NCBI RefSeq assembly: GCF_000018945.1
Contig: NC_011978.1
Location: 528,729 to 592,728 of the forward strand
DNA from: Thermotoga neapolitana DSM 4359
Lineage (GTDB): Bacteria > Thermotogota > Thermotogae > Thermotogales > Thermotogaceae
Direction of reading: 5' to 3'
DNA: 64,000 nucleotides
Shown: one piece after another, positions 7,596 to 58,638 of the stretch
How the letters are laid out: each line of letters opens with the position of its first letter
Numbering within the stretch: the stretch's first letter is position 1
Made by a program: the position numbers and the translations under genes
The notes under the pieces: model-generated
Told to the model about the DNA's origin: nothing
The model's input: the letters and a program-made list of their open reading frames with translations, nothing else
Database searches by the model: none

Positions 7596-7630
7596 TTGGC
7601 TTGAAAACTATTCTACAGAGGGGTGATAAA

Positions 7631-9502
7631 GTGAAAACAGCCGTTCTGAACAGATTCGTGTTTTCCGACGAAGTTAAGGATATCATAGAGAGCGCTTCAG
7701 AAATAATAATACCAGAAAGCAGAAAAGAAATTCTTGAACTTGCAACAGGCAATAAAGACGTTTTTGAAGTGGGATACGACGTTCCAGGAAAAGGCTTCGT
7801 AGTGGAAGCAACCGTTACACGTTGCAGAAATGGCCTGGTGGTGAATTATCCTGAACCATACATGAGAAGAAGAGATCCAGATGCCCTTGTGGTTGGAGAC
7901 AATAAGGAAACAGACAAGCCAAGGTTCAAGGACCGATTCGGAAAAGACTTCGAACCTATTCGGCAGGAAACCTTCGACTGGTTGAAAAAACAGGAGTTGA
8001 TCCTTTTACCCTTCATGGCAGGAGGATACGATTATGGCTATCCGGCCGTTCTGATAGCCCCGAAGAACGCCGGCTTTTTTGTGGGAGGACTGGCAGATCT
8101 TCAGTTCTTCGTTCCGGCAAGCAAAATCCCGGAGAATTTCAAGCCGAGGTTGTACATGTTCCTGGCACCCCCCTTCAGACACACCCATTTCAACGGAAAA
8201 CAGGTGGTGGTCCATTACAGGCACAATTCCCATTACGAGATATTCTCTTACAATCTCTATCCAGGACCAAGTGCGAAGAAAGGAGTCTATGGATTTTTAC
8301 TCTACATAGGTGAAAAAGAAAAATGGGTCACCGCACACGCTTCTGCGGTGAAGGTGATCACCCCGTACGAAAATGAACTCGTTATCATGCACGAGGGAGC
8401 AAGCGGTGGTGGAAAGAGTGAGATACTCGAAGAGATCCACAGAGAACCTGACGGCAGGATAAAACTCGCGGAAAATCTGATAACGGGAGAAAAGTTCTAC
8501 ATAGAACTCAAAGAAACCTGTGCGCTCCAGCCGGTGGCCGACGACATGTTCATGTGCCACCCGAAACTCCAAACGGGGAAAAAACTCGTAGCGAAGGATG
8601 CGGAAGCTGGATGGTTTATAAGAGTGGACCACATAACGGAGTACGGAAGTGCTCCAGACTTGGAAAGGCTGACGATACATCCACCTGAACCTTTAATTTT
8701 TCTCAACATTCATGCCGTTCCAGATTCAACAGCCCTGATCTGGGAACACATCGAAGATGAACCGGGGAAACCCTGTCCGAACCCGCGTGTCATCATCCCA
8801 AAGAGATTCATGAAAAACGCCATCTCCGATCCCGTAGAAGTGGATGTGAGAAGTTTCGGTGTGAGAACACCTCCGTGTACAAAAGAGAAGCCAACGTACG
8901 GGATCATCGGCCTTATGCAGGTACTACCCCCCGCAATAGCGTGGCTCTGGAGGCTGGTGGCACCAAGAGGATTCGCCAACCCGAGTATAGTCGGTACGAA
9001 GGGAATGACGAGCGAAGGTGTGGGATCTTTCTGGCCGTTCTCTTCCGGAAAGATGGTGAGGCTCGCCAACATTCTTCTTGAGCAGATCATAGACACACCC
9101 GGAACCAGGTACATCCTCGTTCCAAACCAACACATAGGAGTCTACAAGGTCGGATTCATGCCGGAGTGGATCGCAAGGGAGTACCTCTCAAGAAGAGGAG
9201 GAGTGAAATTCAAACCGAACCAGCTCGTGCCGTCAAAATGTGCTCTGCTTGGATTTTCACTCAAGGAAATGAAGATCGAAGGAATAACGATCCCCAAGGA
9301 ACTTCTGCAACCACATCTGCAACCGGAATTGGGAGAGGAAGCCTACGAAAAAGGAGCACAGCAACTCAGAGACTTCTTCAAGAGAGAACTCAAAAAATTC
9401 CTCACAGAGGATCTGAACCCGGTTGGAAGAGAGATCATCCAGTGCTGCCTCGACGATGGGTCCCTTGAGGATTATCTGAAGATCATTCCCATGAACTTTT
9501 AA
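7631..9502 (+). CDS. DUF4914 protein with HprK/PEPCK-type P-loop
   Basis: A 623-residue cytoplasmic protein that I assign to the uncharacterised DUF4914 family. A P-loop GASGGGKSE is at residues 256-264 and a VADD motif at 302-305. That pair is the signature of HPr kinase (GxSGxGKSE plus VADD) and fits the PEP carboxykinase-like fold, so a nucleotide-dependent kinase or related activity is likely; this is inference. Other conserved-looking stretches are PPFRHTHFNGK, VHYRHNSHYEIF and EGVGSFWPFSSGK. GTG at 7631 follows GGGGTGATAAA; a TTG-type start 30 bases earlier would precede the ribosome site. It is monocistronic, with its own promoter and terminator. Substrate unknown. Confidence 0.82.
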   Translation: MKTAVLNRFVFSDEVKDIIESASEIIIPESRKEILELATGNKDVFEVGYDVPGKGFVVEATVTRCRNGLVVNYPEPYMRRRDPDALVVGDNKETDKPRFKDRFGKDFEPIRQETFDWLKKQELILLPFMAGGYDYGYPAVLIAPKNAGFFVGGLADLQFFVPASKIPENFKPRLYMFLAPPFRHTHFNGKQVVVHYRHNSHYEIFSYNLYPGPSAKKGVYGFLLYIGEKEKWVTAHASAVKVITPYENELVIMHEGASGGGKSEILEEIHREPDGRIKLAENLITGEKFYIELKETCALQPVADDMFMCHPKLQTGKKLVAKDAEAGWFIRVDHITEYGSAPDLERLTIHPPEPLIFLNIHAVPDSTALIWEHIEDEPGKPCPNPRVIIPKRFMKNAISDPVEVDVRSFGVRTPPCTKEKPTYGIIGLMQVLPPAIAWLWRLVAPRGFANPSIVGTKGMTSEGVGSFWPFSSGKMVRLANILLEQIIDTPGTRYILVPNQHIGVYKVGFMPEWIAREYLSRRGGVKFKPNQLVPSKCALLGFSLKEMKIEGITIPKELLQPHLQPELGEEAYEKGAQQLRDFFKRELKKFLTEDLNPVGREIIQCCLDDGSLEDYLKIIPMNF

Positions 9503-9525
9503 AGCGGGGGACAACCCCGCTTTTT
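9501..9525. terminator. Bidirectional terminator between DUF4914 and LUD genes
   Basis: AAAGCGGGG and CCCCGCTTT form a nine-base-pair stem with a GACAA loop, and runs of T flank it on both strands. It lies between two convergent genes. Confidence 0.88.
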
Positions 9526-10172
9526 CAAAGTCCAAGGTCTTCAAGTGTCAAGATCACCTTGAACCTTCCAGGCTGCCTCACACCGGATTCCACTACCAAG
9601 AAATAATCGCATATTCTCTGGGGAGAAGAACAGTCAGCGCAGAATCCCGTCTTCGTACATGGGGTTTCCAGATTCAATCGCTTTGAATTCATCGGAGAAA
9701 TGTACCTCAACCTCTCTCTTGCTTCTTCGACATCTTTTACCACTTTGTTCACGCTTGCGATCACGATCACATTCCTGGGACCGTAGACAACCGCTGCCAC
9801 CCTGTTCCCGTTTCCATCGAGAAAGACCAGTTTTCCATCCTCCGTTATAGCATTTGCACTGGTGAAGTAGTAATCAGCCCAGAAACTCTTTCTGTATATC
9901 TCCTCCACTTCCTCTCTGGTTTTGGCGGAATACCTGTCAAGGAAGTTGTATTTTCCACTGCGCAGAAGATCGAGAACACCAGTATCAGCCAGTGTGAGAG
10001 AACCACCAACCGCCACGGTTGCGCCTTCTGGAACGATCTCTTTTACTTTCTCAACGACTTCTCTCCTGTCTTTCACCACCCAGACCTCATGTTTCTTTTT
10101 TCTTAAACTGTTAGCCAAATGCTCAGCGATCTTCTCTTTCTTCCACAGCCACAAATCTTCTCTCAGACTCAC
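9525..10172 (-). CDS. LUD-domain (LutC/YkgG-like, DUF162) protein
   Basis: A 215-residue protein of the LUD family, which includes LutB/LutC of lactate utilisation. Typical family features are PEGATVAVGGSLTLADTGVLDLL, the aspartate/tyrosine segment WADYYFTSANAITEDGKLVFLDGNGNR, and GPRNVIVIASVNKVV. The C-terminal cysteine cluster CTKTGFCADCSSPQRIC (about residues 172-188) could bind an iron-sulfur cluster or zinc. The start is GTG at 10170-10172, eight bases after AAGGAGGTG. No lutA or lutB neighbour is present, so a role in lactate oxidation is not supported by context. It lies beside oriC, transcribed away from it. Confidence 0.85.
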   Translation of the reverse strand: MSLREDLWLWKKEKIAEHLANSLRKKKHEVWVVKDRREVVEKVKEIVPEGATVAVGGSLTLADTGVLDLLRSGKYNFLDRYSAKTREEVEEIYRKSFWADYYFTSANAITEDGKLVFLDGNGNRVAAVVYGPRNVIVIASVNKVVKDVEEARERLRYISPMNSKRLNLETPCTKTGFCADCSSPQRICDYFLVVESGVRQPGRFKVILTLEDLGL

Positions 10173-10223
10173 AGAAAAACACCTCCTTGGATTATGAATT
10201 TTGAGACTTAAACACTAAAATAT

Positions 10224-10262
10224 CTTACCTACAACTAAAATGGTAGGTTTAGTGGTAGGTTT
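10224..10262. repeat. DnaA box cluster, left
   Basis: Three 12-mers: CTTACCTACAAC (10224-10235, forward, weak), AATGGTAGGTTT (10239-10250, reverse) and AGTGGTAGGTTT (10251-10262, reverse). The last two are adjacent and in tandem. Confidence 0.8.
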
Positions 10263-10355
10263 CTGAACACTACTTATGGTATCTATTGGTAGAAAACACA
10301 CAACATGAAGTAGAAAAAGTGATGAAGAATCATTCTTTGCTTCTTTTTTCACAAA

Positions 10356-10367
10356 TAACCTACCACT
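10356..10367 (+). repeat. DnaA box, forward
   Basis: TAACCTACCACT differs from the Thermotoga 12-mer only at its first and last positions. Confidence 0.85.
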
Positions 10368-10401
10368 TCTCTCTGAAATCAGCTTCCAAAGCCGATTTGA
10401 A

Positions 10402-10413
10402 GGTGGTAGGTTT
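10402..10413 (-). repeat. DnaA box, reverse, perfect consensus
   Basis: GGTGGTAGGTTT is the exact reverse complement of AAACCTACCACC. Confidence 0.92.
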
Positions 10414-10480
10414 CTGTATGATTCACCAAAAGAGCACTTTAGTTCTCACAAACAATTTTACCGTAAAATCTTCGTTCTTT

Positions 10481-10533
10481 GAAATCCTCTTCTGAAGAGA
10501 GTTTCAGAAAACCTACCACCTGAAATCCTCTTC
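10481..10533 (+). repeat. 12-base direct repeat GAAATCCTCTTC inside oriC
   Basis: GAAATCCTCTTC occurs at 10481-10492 and again at 10522-10533, 41 bases apart, about four helical turns. The second copy begins just after the perfect forward DnaA box. It is unrelated to the DnaA box, so it could be a site for another origin-binding protein. Confidence 0.6.
10509..10520 (+). repeat. DnaA box, forward, perfect consensus
   Basis: AAACCTACCACC, exact consensus, between the two copies of the GAAATCCTCTTC repeat. Confidence 0.92.
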
Positions 10534-10550
10534 AAAAGCGACTTATAGAA

Positions 10551-10598
10551 TAACTTACCACTAACCTACCACTAACCTACCACCTGGGTGGTAAGTTG
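10551..10598. repeat. Phased DnaA box array
   Basis: Three head-to-tail forward boxes start at 10551 (TAACTTACCACT), 10562 (TAACCTACCACT) and 10573 (TAACCTACCACC), each 11 bases apart, so they lie on the same face of the helix. An inverted copy, GGTGGTAAGTTG, follows at 10587-10598. Confidence 0.88.
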
Positions 10599-10650
10599 CA
10601 GACATGATTCTTTCTTGCATCAGAAAACGGATAGAAATTTTCAACTTGAG

Positions 10651-10693
10651 AAACCTACCACTTTGCGGTCTGTTTTATTACTACTACTACTAA
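10651..10693 (+). promoter_or_regulatory. DnaA box, GC-rich spacer and DnaA-trio unwinding element
   Basis: A forward DnaA box AAACCTACCACT (10651-10662) is followed by a short GC patch (GCGGTC) and then four TAC triplets and one TAA (10679-10693). This order matches the bacterial origin unwinding system described in Bacillus subtilis, where repeated trinucleotides (DnaA-trios) guide DnaA onto single strands. The tract runs directly into the -10 region of the next gene. Confidence 0.75.
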
Positions 10694-10696
10694 GAG

Positions 10697-10702
10697 TATA
10701 AT
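10697..10702 (+). promoter_or_regulatory. -10 element of the DUF177-rpmF operon
   Basis: A perfect TATAAT, 19 bases before the ATG at 10721. The -35 position falls in the TAC tract of the origin, so promoter and unwinding element overlap. No clear -35 hexamer. Confidence 0.5.
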
Positions 10703-10720
10703 AGTCATGAGGTGAGAAGA

Positions 10721-11269
10721 ATGGACTGGAAAGTTGAACTTGCAGAAATTGAAAAGAAAAAACGATTTTTTCTGGAAGGTGAGTACAAAAGTGAAGGAAT
10801 AGAACTGGATGTGGGTTTTTGTAAGTTCCTGGAGCCGGTTCGGGTGAAGATGGTTGTTGCAAAGACCAAAGATGGATTCACCATCGGTGGGTACGTTCAC
10901 ACAGCGATAGAGCACCCGTGTGCCAGATGTCTGGAACCAACGCGTGTGGAGATAAAAGGTGTGATAGAGGCACTTTATCTTCCAGAGAGCATGCGAAAAA
11001 ATGTAAAAGAAGAGAAACTTGAATCTTTGAAGAATATCATATACTATCATGAAACGGAATTCGATCTTTCAGAGAGAATCGTTGAAGCGATAGTGGTGAG
11101 TGTACCCGAAAAGGTTCTGTGTAAACCGGATTGTAAAGGACTGTGCCCGCACTGCGGAACCAATTTGAACGAAGAACCCGATCACAGGTGTGATAAAATT
11201 CCTGTGGTCGACAGTCGATTCGAGATCCTTGCTAAACTGAAGGATAACCTTGAGAACAGGGAGGTATAA
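10721..11269 (+). CDS. DUF177/YceD-family protein
   Basis: A 182-residue cytoplasmic protein of the YceD (DUF177) family, which is almost always encoded just before rpmF, as here. In E. coli and plants it is linked to 23S rRNA accumulation and 50S assembly. Family features: CARCLEP with Cys67 and Cys70, and a second cysteine set Cys134, Cys138, Cys142, Cys145 in VLCKPDCKGLCPHCGTNLNEEPDHRCD, probably a zinc site. ATG at 10721 follows GAGGTGAGA; the GTG at 10712 sits in the ribosome site. It is the first gene to the right of oriC and heads a long forward operon. Confidence 0.9.
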   Translation: MDWKVELAEIEKKKRFFLEGEYKSEGIELDVGFCKFLEPVRVKMVVAKTKDGFTIGGYVHTAIEHPCARCLEPTRVEIKGVIEALYLPESMRKNVKEEKLESLKNIIYYHETEFDLSERIVEAIVVSVPEKVLCKPDCKGLCPHCGTNLNEEPDHRCDKIPVVDSRFEILAKLKDNLENREV

Positions 11270-57118: not shown

Positions 57119-58638
57119 TTCCTGATCTCCTCCAGTCTGTGCCCCGCCATCATCAAACCAACTTCTTCTCTGGTCGTTTCCTCCGGCCTTACCTCACCCA
57201 TTATCTGACCTTCGTACATCACAAGGATTCGGTCACTCAGGGAAAAGATCTCGTCCAGTTCCATGGAGATGAGAAGGATTCCAACGCCTCTGTCCCGCAT
57301 AGATACGAGTGTTTTATGGATGAACTCTATAGCTCCCACATCGAGTCCCCGTGTCGGCTGAGCCACTACGAGGAGTTCTGGTGAGAAACTCAGTTCACGG
57401 GCAACTATTATCTTTTGCTGATTGCCCCCTGAAAAACTTCCGGCGAGAAGTTCGATGTTCCTTGGCCTTATATCGAACTCCTCGAAGAGTTTTCTGGAAA
57501 AAGACTTTATTTCTCTGAAGTTGAGGAAACCGTTCTTTACAAAGGGTTCTATCATGTGCCTTCCGAGGATGGTGTTGAAGTAGGCGGGGAAGTCAACTAT
57601 GAGGCCTCTTTTCAAACGATCTTCGGGAACGTGATAGATACCAAGGTCTCTCAGACGTTTTGGATCGTATCCTGTTATGTCTTTTCCTTTGAAAAGCACC
57701 TTTCCCTTTTCCACTCTCCTCAAACCGGTGATTGCTTCTACCAGTTCAGACTGGCCGTTGCCAGCAACACCCGCTATGCCCACTATTTCTCCTTTTTTCA
57801 CCTCGAGCGAGATACCTTTCACCGCATCAAGACCCCGGTTATCCTTGACCCACAGATCTTTCACTTCAAGGAGGGTCTCTCCAGGCTTTTTCGGTTTTTT
57901 CTCAACGGTCAGAACCACATCCCTTCCCACCATGAGTCTTGCTATTTCCTGGGGGGTCGTCTGAGAGGTGATGAGATTTCCGGTTACTTTTCCCTGTCTC
58001 ATCACGGTGATTCTGTCGGAGATGGCCATGACTTCGTTCAGTTTATGTGAAATGAAGATGATCGTTTTTCCATTTTTCTTCAACCTTCTCAGAATGTCGA
58101 ACAGTTCTTCTGTTTCCTGTGGCGTCAGGACCGCTGTTGGCTCGTCGAGGATGAGGATGTCCGCACCTCTGTAGAGGGTTTTTATGATCTCCACTCTCTG
58201 TTGCAGACCGACAGGCATGTCTTCTATTTTCATGTCGACATCCACCATGAGACCGTACTCTTCTGAAAGTTTCTTCACTTCATTCCTTGCCTTTTTCCTG
58301 TCCAGAATCAATCCTTTTTTTGGTTCCATGCCGATTATCACGTTTTCGTAGGCGGTCAGGTTCTCCACCAGCATGAAATGCTGATGCACCATGCCTATTC
58401 CGTGTTTTATGGCATCTGCAGGTCCGGAGAACTCCACCTTCGTCCCGTTTATGTATATCTCTCCTTCATCGGGTTTCAAAAGGCCGTAGAGTTGTTTCAT
58501 CAGAGTGGTCTTTCCCGCCCCGTTTTCACCCACGATGGCATGTATCTCTCCCTTTTCCACGAAGAGATCAACATGGTTGTTCGCCAGAACCCCGGGAAAT
58601 CTTTTGACGATACCTTTCATCACAACCGCGTATTCCAC
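57115..58638 (-). CDS. Nucleoside ABC transporter ATP-binding protein (NupO/YufO-like)
   Basis: A 507-residue double ABC ATPase. Domain one: Walker A GENGAGKTT, signature VGLQQRVEIIKTLYRG, Walker B ILILDEPTAVLTP. Domain two: an altered Walker A GVAGNGQSE, signature FSGGNQQKIIVAREL and Walker B VAQPTRGLD. This layout belongs to the guanosine/BMP uptake systems. A hairpin lies between it and the binding-protein gene upstream. It energises import of purine or other nucleosides. Confidence 0.9.
   Translation of the reverse strand: MEYAVVMKGIVKRFPGVLANNHVDLFVEKGEIHAIVGENGAGKTTLMKQLYGLLKPDEGEIYINGTKVEFSGPADAIKHGIGMVHQHFMLVENLTAYENVIIGMEPKKGLILDRKKARNEVKKLSEEYGLMVDVDMKIEDMPVGLQQRVEIIKTLYRGADILILDEPTAVLTPQETEELFDILRRLKKNGKTIIFISHKLNEVMAISDRITVMRQGKVTGNLITSQTTPQEIARLMVGRDVVLTVEKKPKKPGETLLEVKDLWVKDNRGLDAVKGISLEVKKGEIVGIAGVAGNGQSELVEAITGLRRVEKGKVLFKGKDITGYDPKRLRDLGIYHVPEDRLKRGLIVDFPAYFNTILGRHMIEPFVKNGFLNFREIKSFSRKLFEEFDIRPRNIELLAGSFSGGNQQKIIVARELSFSPELLVVAQPTRGLDVGAIEFIHKTLVSMRDRGVGILLISMELDEIFSLSDRILVMYEGQIMGEVRPEETTREEVGLMMAGHRLEEIRK

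What the first reader, a model, noticed from the sequence alone, without database searches (positions are those of the whole stretch)
10200..10700. Chromosomal replication origin with ten or more 12-mer DnaA boxes
A 550-base gap without genes contains many copies of AAACCTACCACC and near variants in both orientations. Two are perfect (10402-10413 reverse, 10509-10520 forward). The 12-mer differs from the usual 9-mer TTATCCACA and is the one reported for T. maritima DnaA. The origin lies by yceD-rpmF rather than beside dnaA, which is itself unusual.
Basis: partly seen in the sequence, partly recalled or inferred. Interest (0 to 1): 0.8.

Follow-up and report, generated by a model that had tools for sequence, protein, structure and literature searches.

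The report
Thermotoga chromosome replication origin
This gap between genes is the spot where this heat-loving bacterium starts copying its chromosome; it is the same origin already studied in Thermotoga maritima, and comparing relatives suggests that its odd DnaA-binding signal arose from the ordinary one while the layout of the origin stayed put.

Summary
Window 10173-10711 is intergenic and holds ten 12-mer DnaA boxes in both orientations. The only two perfect AAACCTACCACC copies in the 1.88-Mb genome lie here. Dinucleotide shuffles of the gap give at most 2 boxes against 11 seen.

Box order, orientation and spacing match the characterised tma-oriC, including inverted box 2. A TAG-repeat unwinding element lies outside box 1. 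In 800 kb of sampled genome, orientation-corrected fourfold-site GC skew and keto skew put the origin at 522-545 kb, around the cluster at 539 kb; A/T skew alone is inconclusive. dnaA is about 0.8 Mb away.

What is new is comparative. Related families carry box clusters with recognisably similar spacing at different loci. Box consensus runs TTTTC[AC]ACA, TT[AT]TCTACCAC, AAACTTACCAC, AAACCTACCACC, in step with DnaA's recognition loop (RDHSS, SHPT, THPS, SHPV). So the T. maritima 12-mer looks derived, not ancestral as once proposed. In this species a fourth TAG replaces the TTATT motif of the T. maritima unwinding element.

Verdict: a new member of a known kind.

The parts
10173..10711 (.). Intergenic region holding the complete oriC (about G000:C1:538,901-539,439)
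10551..10702 (-). [quoted passage not shown] read on the minus strand as in the T. maritima papers
   Evidence: Alignment with the T. maritima orthologue G091, whose sequence matches published oligos TMA28, 912, 824 and 930
10678..10692 (-). Core of the unwinding element: TAG-TAG-TAG-TAG-TAA on the minus strand (eTrio; T. maritima has three TAG)
   Evidence: eTrio shown essential in vitro for T. maritima
10663..10677 (-). Spacer between the TAG repeats and box 1 (GC-richer CAGACCGC next to box 1)
10651..10662 (+). DnaA box 1 (AAACCTACCACT)
10587..10598 (-). DnaA box 2, inverted as in T. maritima (CAACTTACCACC)
10573..10584 (+). DnaA box 3 (TAACCTACCACC)
10562..10573 (+). DnaA box 4 (TAACCTACCACT), 11 bp from box 3
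10551..10562 (+). DnaA box 5 (TAACTTACCACT), 11 bp from box 4
10509..10520 (+). DnaA box 6, perfect 12-mer
10402..10413 (-). DnaA box 7, perfect 12-mer
10356..10367 (+). DnaA box 8 (TAACCTACCACT)
10251..10262 (-). DnaA box 9 (AAACCTACCACT)
10239..10250 (-). DnaA box 10 (AAACCTACCATT)
10697..10702 (+). TATAAT, identical in all seven genomes; probable -10 element of the yceD-rpmF-plsX promoter, abutting the unwinding element
   Evidence: no standard -35 found, so inferred
9525..10172 (-). Left flanking gene, LUD-domain protein (PF02589)
10712..11269 (+). Right flanking gene yceD (PF02620), followed by rpmF, plsX, glmS

Best explanation
This is the single chromosomal replication origin (oriC) of this Thermotoga species, orthologous to the reconstituted T. 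maritima oriC. Likely mechanism, shown in vitro for T. maritima and inferred here by orthology: ATP-DnaA binds boxes 1-5, forming a head-to-tail oligomer on boxes 2-5 despite the inverted box 2. HU bends the roughly 65-bp spacer between boxes 1 and 2. The TAG-repeat unwinding element next to box 1 melts, and its single-stranded TAG repeats are held by the DnaA molecules on boxes 3-5. Helicase is then loaded and two forks leave. Boxes 6-10 are not needed for the minimal in vitro reaction and probably tune initiation (inferred). Across the order, box spacing is largely kept while box sequence, individual box orientation and chromosomal neighbourhood change.
For: Box cluster far above chance. Same ten boxes at near-invariant spacing (12, 104-107, 45, 108, 42-43, 11, 11, 13, 65) in seven Thermotoga genomes, including the one matching published T. 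maritima oriC oligos. TAG-repeat element beside box 1 in all seven. Fourfold-site GC skew scanned over all origin/terminus pairs: best origin 522.0-545.5 kb (cluster at 539.0-539.4), 1 of 500 block permutations reach it; keto skew same interval, 0 of 500; raw cumulative GC skew minimum at 522 kb and maximum at 1,415 kb. In a relative (G063) GC, TA and keto skews put the origin beside its own, differently located box cluster and not at dnaA, 0 of 300 each. Published biochemistry for T. maritima.
Against: No replication experiment was seen for this species. The TTATT motif of the T. maritima unwinding element is absent here. A/T fourfold skew alone is ambiguous (best interval 475-498 kb, 522-545 close behind; 24 of 500). 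The first 40-block skew sample was not significant in strength for GC or A/T alone, although its best interval also held the cluster. The skew breakpoint has a resolution of about 23 kb.
Confidence: 0.97

Rival explanations
1. A DnaA-titration or DnaA-reactivation site (like E. coli datA or DARS) that is not the origin.
For: Such sites also consist of DnaA boxes, and boxes 6-10 could serve such a role (established knowledge of E. coli; mentions DARS).
Against: It has an unwinding element orthologous to one that opens in vitro, and the strand-composition breakpoint lies here. No second cluster of comparable boxes exists in the genome.
Confidence: 0.015
2. An operator array for a transcription regulator of the divergent LUD and yceD genes.
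For: It lies between divergently transcribed genes, and an invariant TATAAT adjoins it.
Against: In related families similarly spaced arrays with related boxes sit between quite different genes, and the 12-mer is the published DnaA box.
Confidence: 0.005
3. On the history of the box only: the 12-mer is the ancestral bacterial box and the 9-mer evolved from it by shortening, as proposed after the 2006 T. maritima work.
For: Proposed in the literature on the grounds of the deep branching of T. maritima.
Against: A sister order in the same phylum uses TTTTC[AC]ACA boxes with a canonical RDHSS recognition loop, and intermediates (TT[AT]TCTACCAC, AAACTTACCAC) occur in families of the same order as Thermotoga. 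By parsimony the 12-mer is derived.
Confidence: 0.12

Closest known systems
Thermotoga maritima oriC (tma-oriC; Ozaki 2006, Lu 2023, PMC10316083)
   Same: Ten boxes, same order, orientation and spacing; inverted box 2; TAG-repeat unwinding element next to box 1; same neighbours DUF4914-LUD / yceD-rpmF-plsX.
   Different: Four TAG instead of TTATT plus three TAG; boxes 3-5 begin TAAC and box 5 is ACTTACCAC; the GC-rich spacer differs.
Bacillus subtilis and Helicobacter pylori origins with DnaA-trios
   Same: TAG-rich trinucleotide repeats in the unwinding element flanking a DnaA-box cluster (described in PMC10316083).
   Different: Box sequence is the usual 9-mer type; the origin adjoins dnaA and is bipartite.
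Escherichia coli oriC
   Same: Unwinding element plus DnaA oligomerisation region; recruitment of single-stranded DNA by DnaA.
   Different: Box TTATCCACA, boxes uniformly oriented within each half, IHF site, TT[A/G]T(T) motifs instead of TAG repeats.
Predicted origins of other Thermotogota families (found here)
   Same: Arrays of about 8-14 boxes with 11/12-, 44/45- and often 65/66-bp spacings, usually with TAG repeats beside the outer box.
   Different: Other box consensus, other neighbours (CBS-ACT gene with glnA or minD; Mut7-C gene with DUF4416-like gene; groES with coaD region), some boxes flipped.

Membership tests
T. maritima-type oriC | Cluster of about ten AAACCTACCACC-type boxes | tested here: met
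T. maritima-type oriC | Boxes 1-5 with box 2 inverted and published spacing | tested here: met
   65, 13, 11, 11 in all seven genomes; published layout
T. maritima-type oriC | Three TAG repeats (eTrio) in the unwinding element | tested here: met
   Four TAG at 10681-10692 minus strand
T. maritima-type oriC | Auxiliary TTATT motif upstream of eTrio | tested here: not met
   Replaced by a fourth TAG in G000, G094, G095 and G096; in vitro this motif is only stimulatory, so it is not treated as defining
T. maritima-type oriC | Same gene neighbourhood (LUD / yceD-rpmF) | tested here: met
T. maritima-type oriC | Cognate DnaA with the same DNA-recognition loop | tested here: met
   G000 NRSHPVVADS, G091 NRSHPVVVDS
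Bacterial chromosomal origin | Leading/lagging composition changes sign at the site | tested here: met
   (for relatives)
Bacterial chromosomal origin | Replication initiates here in vivo | not testable with these tools
   Needs marker-frequency sequencing
Bacterial chromosomal origin | ATP-DnaA-dependent opening of the unwinding element of this species | not testable with these tools
   Shown only for T. maritima
Canonical 9-mer (TTATCCACA) origin next to dnaA | TTATCCACA boxes and adjacent dnaA | tested here: not met
   Boxes differ; dnaA at 1,618 kb, origin at 539 kb

The most novel reading that the evidence does not exclude
Within Thermotogota the origin is a conserved, spacing-defined module that has changed its chromosomal neighbours between families while its DnaA box drifted from the canonical 9-mer type through intermediates to the Thermotoga 12-mer, in step with the DnaA recognition loop. 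The T. maritima 12-mer is thus a derived, co-evolved box, and natural flips of single boxes at fixed spacing (box 2 inverted in Thermotoga, direct in the Pseudothermotoga-like family) repeat in nature the published engineered flip that left unwinding intact.
Probability: 0.72. Interest if true: 0.55.

Novelty: new member of a known kind. Interest (0 to 1): 0.4.

Why it matters
By itself the finding is a correct re-discovery of a known origin in a near relative of T. maritima. The comparison matters more. It gives a natural series of initiator/box pairs inside one phylum, from canonical to the most divergent box known. It argues against the proposal that the 12-mer is the ancestral bacterial DnaA box. 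And it suggests which features of an origin are kept (phasing of boxes, TAG repeats beside box 1) and which are free to change (box letters, orientation of single boxes, neighbouring genes, TTATT motif). All of these can be tested by swapping DnaA domain IV and boxes in the existing in vitro opening assay.

Tried and rejected
Plain GC skew on 40 blocks: no signal (p 0.53); orientation-corrected fourfold sites on the same 40 blocks placed the break correctly but weakly for GC and TA alone; 80 blocks settled GC and keto, not TA. Search of named genomes with YceD returned mostly distant hits, as near genomes are left out there. Box clusters next to dnaA or upstream of yceD in the other genera: none found except in sister genus G090. 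Genera g2, g3, g5 of the same family and g12-g14 of family f3: origin not located with any box pattern tried. Double TTWTCCACA hits in f9, f10 and f11 were isolated pairs, not clusters. A left neighbour that I took for pckA is a DUF4914 protein. A weak DnaA-domain hit inside the window (58009-58200) is an ABC-transporter ATPase, not a second DnaA (by its sequence). No Rfam family and no convincing sigma-70 promoter or terminator in the region.

Full report
Check of the observation. The gap between an LUD-domain gene (9525-10172, minus) and yceD (10712-11269, plus) is 539 bp. It holds ten 12-mers close to AAACCTACCACC, two of them perfect at exactly the stated places. Those are the only perfect copies in the 1,884,562-bp genome. 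With the 9-mer core ACCTACCAC and one mismatch allowed there are 11 sites in the gap; shuffles give mean 0.11 and maximum 2, and the genome background is 0.146 per kb.

Identity with a known origin. A 2023 paper (PMC10316083) describes T. maritima oriC: ten boxes, a 149-bp minimal origin with boxes 1-5, box 2 inverted, and an unwinding element whose three TAG repeats (eTrio) are essential. The orthologous region of G091 (a genome of 1,860,725 bp, which from memory is the size of T. maritima MSB8) matches the published oligonucleotides TMA28, 912, 824 and 930 exactly in the stretches tested. It aligns with the window. All seven genomes of the genus carry the ten boxes with spacings 12, 104-107, 45, 108, 42-43, 11, 11, 13, 65 and the same flanking genes.

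Is it the origin in this genome? The fourfold-degenerate sites of 739 long ORFs in 80 blocks of 10 kb were split by coding strand, and every pair of origin and terminus was tried. GC skew was best with the origin in 522.0-545.5 kb and the terminus in 1,415-1,438 kb; 1 of 500 block permutations did as well. Keto skew gave the same origin (0 of 500). TA skew alone was ambiguous: its best interval was 475-498 kb, with 522-545 kb close behind (24 of 500). The raw cumulative GC skew had its minimum at 522 kb and maximum at 1,415 kb (p 0.034). The cluster is at 539.0-539.4 kb. dnaA is at 1,618 kb, 0.81 Mb away by the shorter path, towards the terminus. Earlier, smaller samples were weaker.

Difference from T. 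maritima. In the unwinding element, G000 and three relatives (G094, G095, G096) have four TAG repeats in a row where T. maritima and two relatives read TATTAT-TAG-TAG-TAG-TAAATAATA. The E. coli-like TTATT motif is thus replaced by one more TAG. This agrees with the in vitro result that TTATT is only stimulatory and TAG repeats are essential. An invariant TATAAT (10697-10702) adjoins the element and probably belongs to the promoter of yceD-rpmF-plsX (inferred; one search finds no standard promoter).

Origins in the rest of the phylum. A search of 103 Thermotogota genomes for paired boxes and then for clusters found these. (a) G090, a sister genus: same place, box AAACTTACCAC. (b) Family f2, all ten genomes examined (G056-G061, G063-G066): upstream of a CBS-ACT-type gene with glnA or minD on the other side where seen, box TT[AT]TCTACCAC or AAATTTACCAC. 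Spacings are 66, 12, 11, 11, 44, 111, 45, 33 in G064 and close to that in the genus g9 and g7 genomes; genus g8 has 75, 12, 12, 21, 45, 108, 44, 32. (c) Family f3, genera g10-g11: near a DUF4416-like gene, with a Mut7-C gene on the other side where it was in the stretch read, box AAACTTACCA, spacing more diverged. (d) Sister-order family f8 (G008, G009, G010, G012, G013, G015, G016, G017): between groES and the coaD region where the genes were read, 9 to 14 exact boxes TTTTC[AC]ACA with 11, 44/45 and 9 bp spacings. TAG repeats lie beside the outer box in most clusters read, not in G008 or G075. Of two million random eight-site layouts over 300 bp none matched the Thermotoga spacing within 3 bp, whereas f2 genome G064 does for seven consecutive intervals. 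The genes flanking the f2, f3 and f8 clusters are not in the window, and the f2 and f3 ones lie at 1,648 kb and 803 kb in G000. Gene names for these flanks are read from the translated sequences, not from a family search.

Are those clusters origins? In G063 (f2) GC, TA and keto fourfold skews each chose 143-241 kb, which holds its cluster at 148.8 kb, and not dnaA at 1 kb (0 of 300 each). In G068 (f3) the keto and raw GC optima lie at its cluster (1,206 kb) and the GC fourfold optimum is one interval away (1,248-1,258 kb), but the strength was not significant and TA skew disagreed. For f8 no skew was computed.

Box and initiator change together. The DnaA recognition loop reads RDHSS in f8, SHPT in f2, THPS or SHP[TA] in f3 g10, SHPL in G090, SHPV in Thermotoga. 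The box runs from TTTTC[AC]ACA through TTTTCTACCAC, TTATCTACCAC, AAATTTACCAC and AAACTTACCAC to AAACCTACCACC. The register TTTTC-CACA / TTTTC-TACC is an inference. A review reports the proposal that the 12-mer is ancestral and the 9-mer a shortened form (PMC4285127). The pattern here, with a canonical box and loop in a sister order, points the other way. Loop and box change only a few times, so this is suggestive, not statistical.

Box orientation. Box 2 is inverted in Thermotoga but direct in f2, at nearly the same place (gap 4 against 3 bp). Box 8 also differs. The published engineered flip of box 2 kept wild-type opening, so nature appears to have done the same experiment.

Verdict. The window feature is an ordinary, functional-looking oriC of known type. 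The added value is the comparative series. Full-text searches of open papers found no description of origins in Pseudothermotoga or Fervidobacterium, but subscription papers and origin databases such as DoriC could not be searched.

Noticed in passing
window 10678-10702: An invariant TATAAT abuts the TAG repeats of the unwinding element, so the promoter of yceD-rpmF-plsX probably overlaps the site of origin opening.
   Followed up: partly
G000:C1:1618034-1618975 (L211): dnaA lies about 85% of the way from the origin to the opposite point of the chromosome, near the inferred terminus; in the T. maritima-sized genome G091 the distance is similar (157 kb against 944 kb).
   Followed up: partly
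L141, L142, L143 (G097-G099): In genus g5 of the same family dnaA sits about 4 kb from plsX-rpmF-yceD, facing it, yet no box cluster was found there.
   Followed up: partly
L153, L154, L141, L143: DnaA of genera g2, g3 and g5 has SPSV[IV]S in place of the usual xH[PS]xV recognition loop, losing the otherwise conserved histidine; their boxes and origins were not found with any pattern tried.
   Followed up: partly
L367 (G084), 1501-1555: Four exact and one near TTATCCACA-type boxes spaced 11-12 bp apart, near what may be a replication-protein gene and a phage-like gene; possibly a prophage or plasmid origin rather than the chromosomal one.
   Followed up: no
G090:C6:259892-260431 and G095:C1:719692-720234: The match to the DUF4416-like gene has one in-frame TGA in both genomes.
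   Followed up: no
window 7601-9502: Gene left of the LUD gene is a DUF4914 protein (633 aa, PF16260), conserved beside the origin in the genus; function unknown.
   Followed up: no
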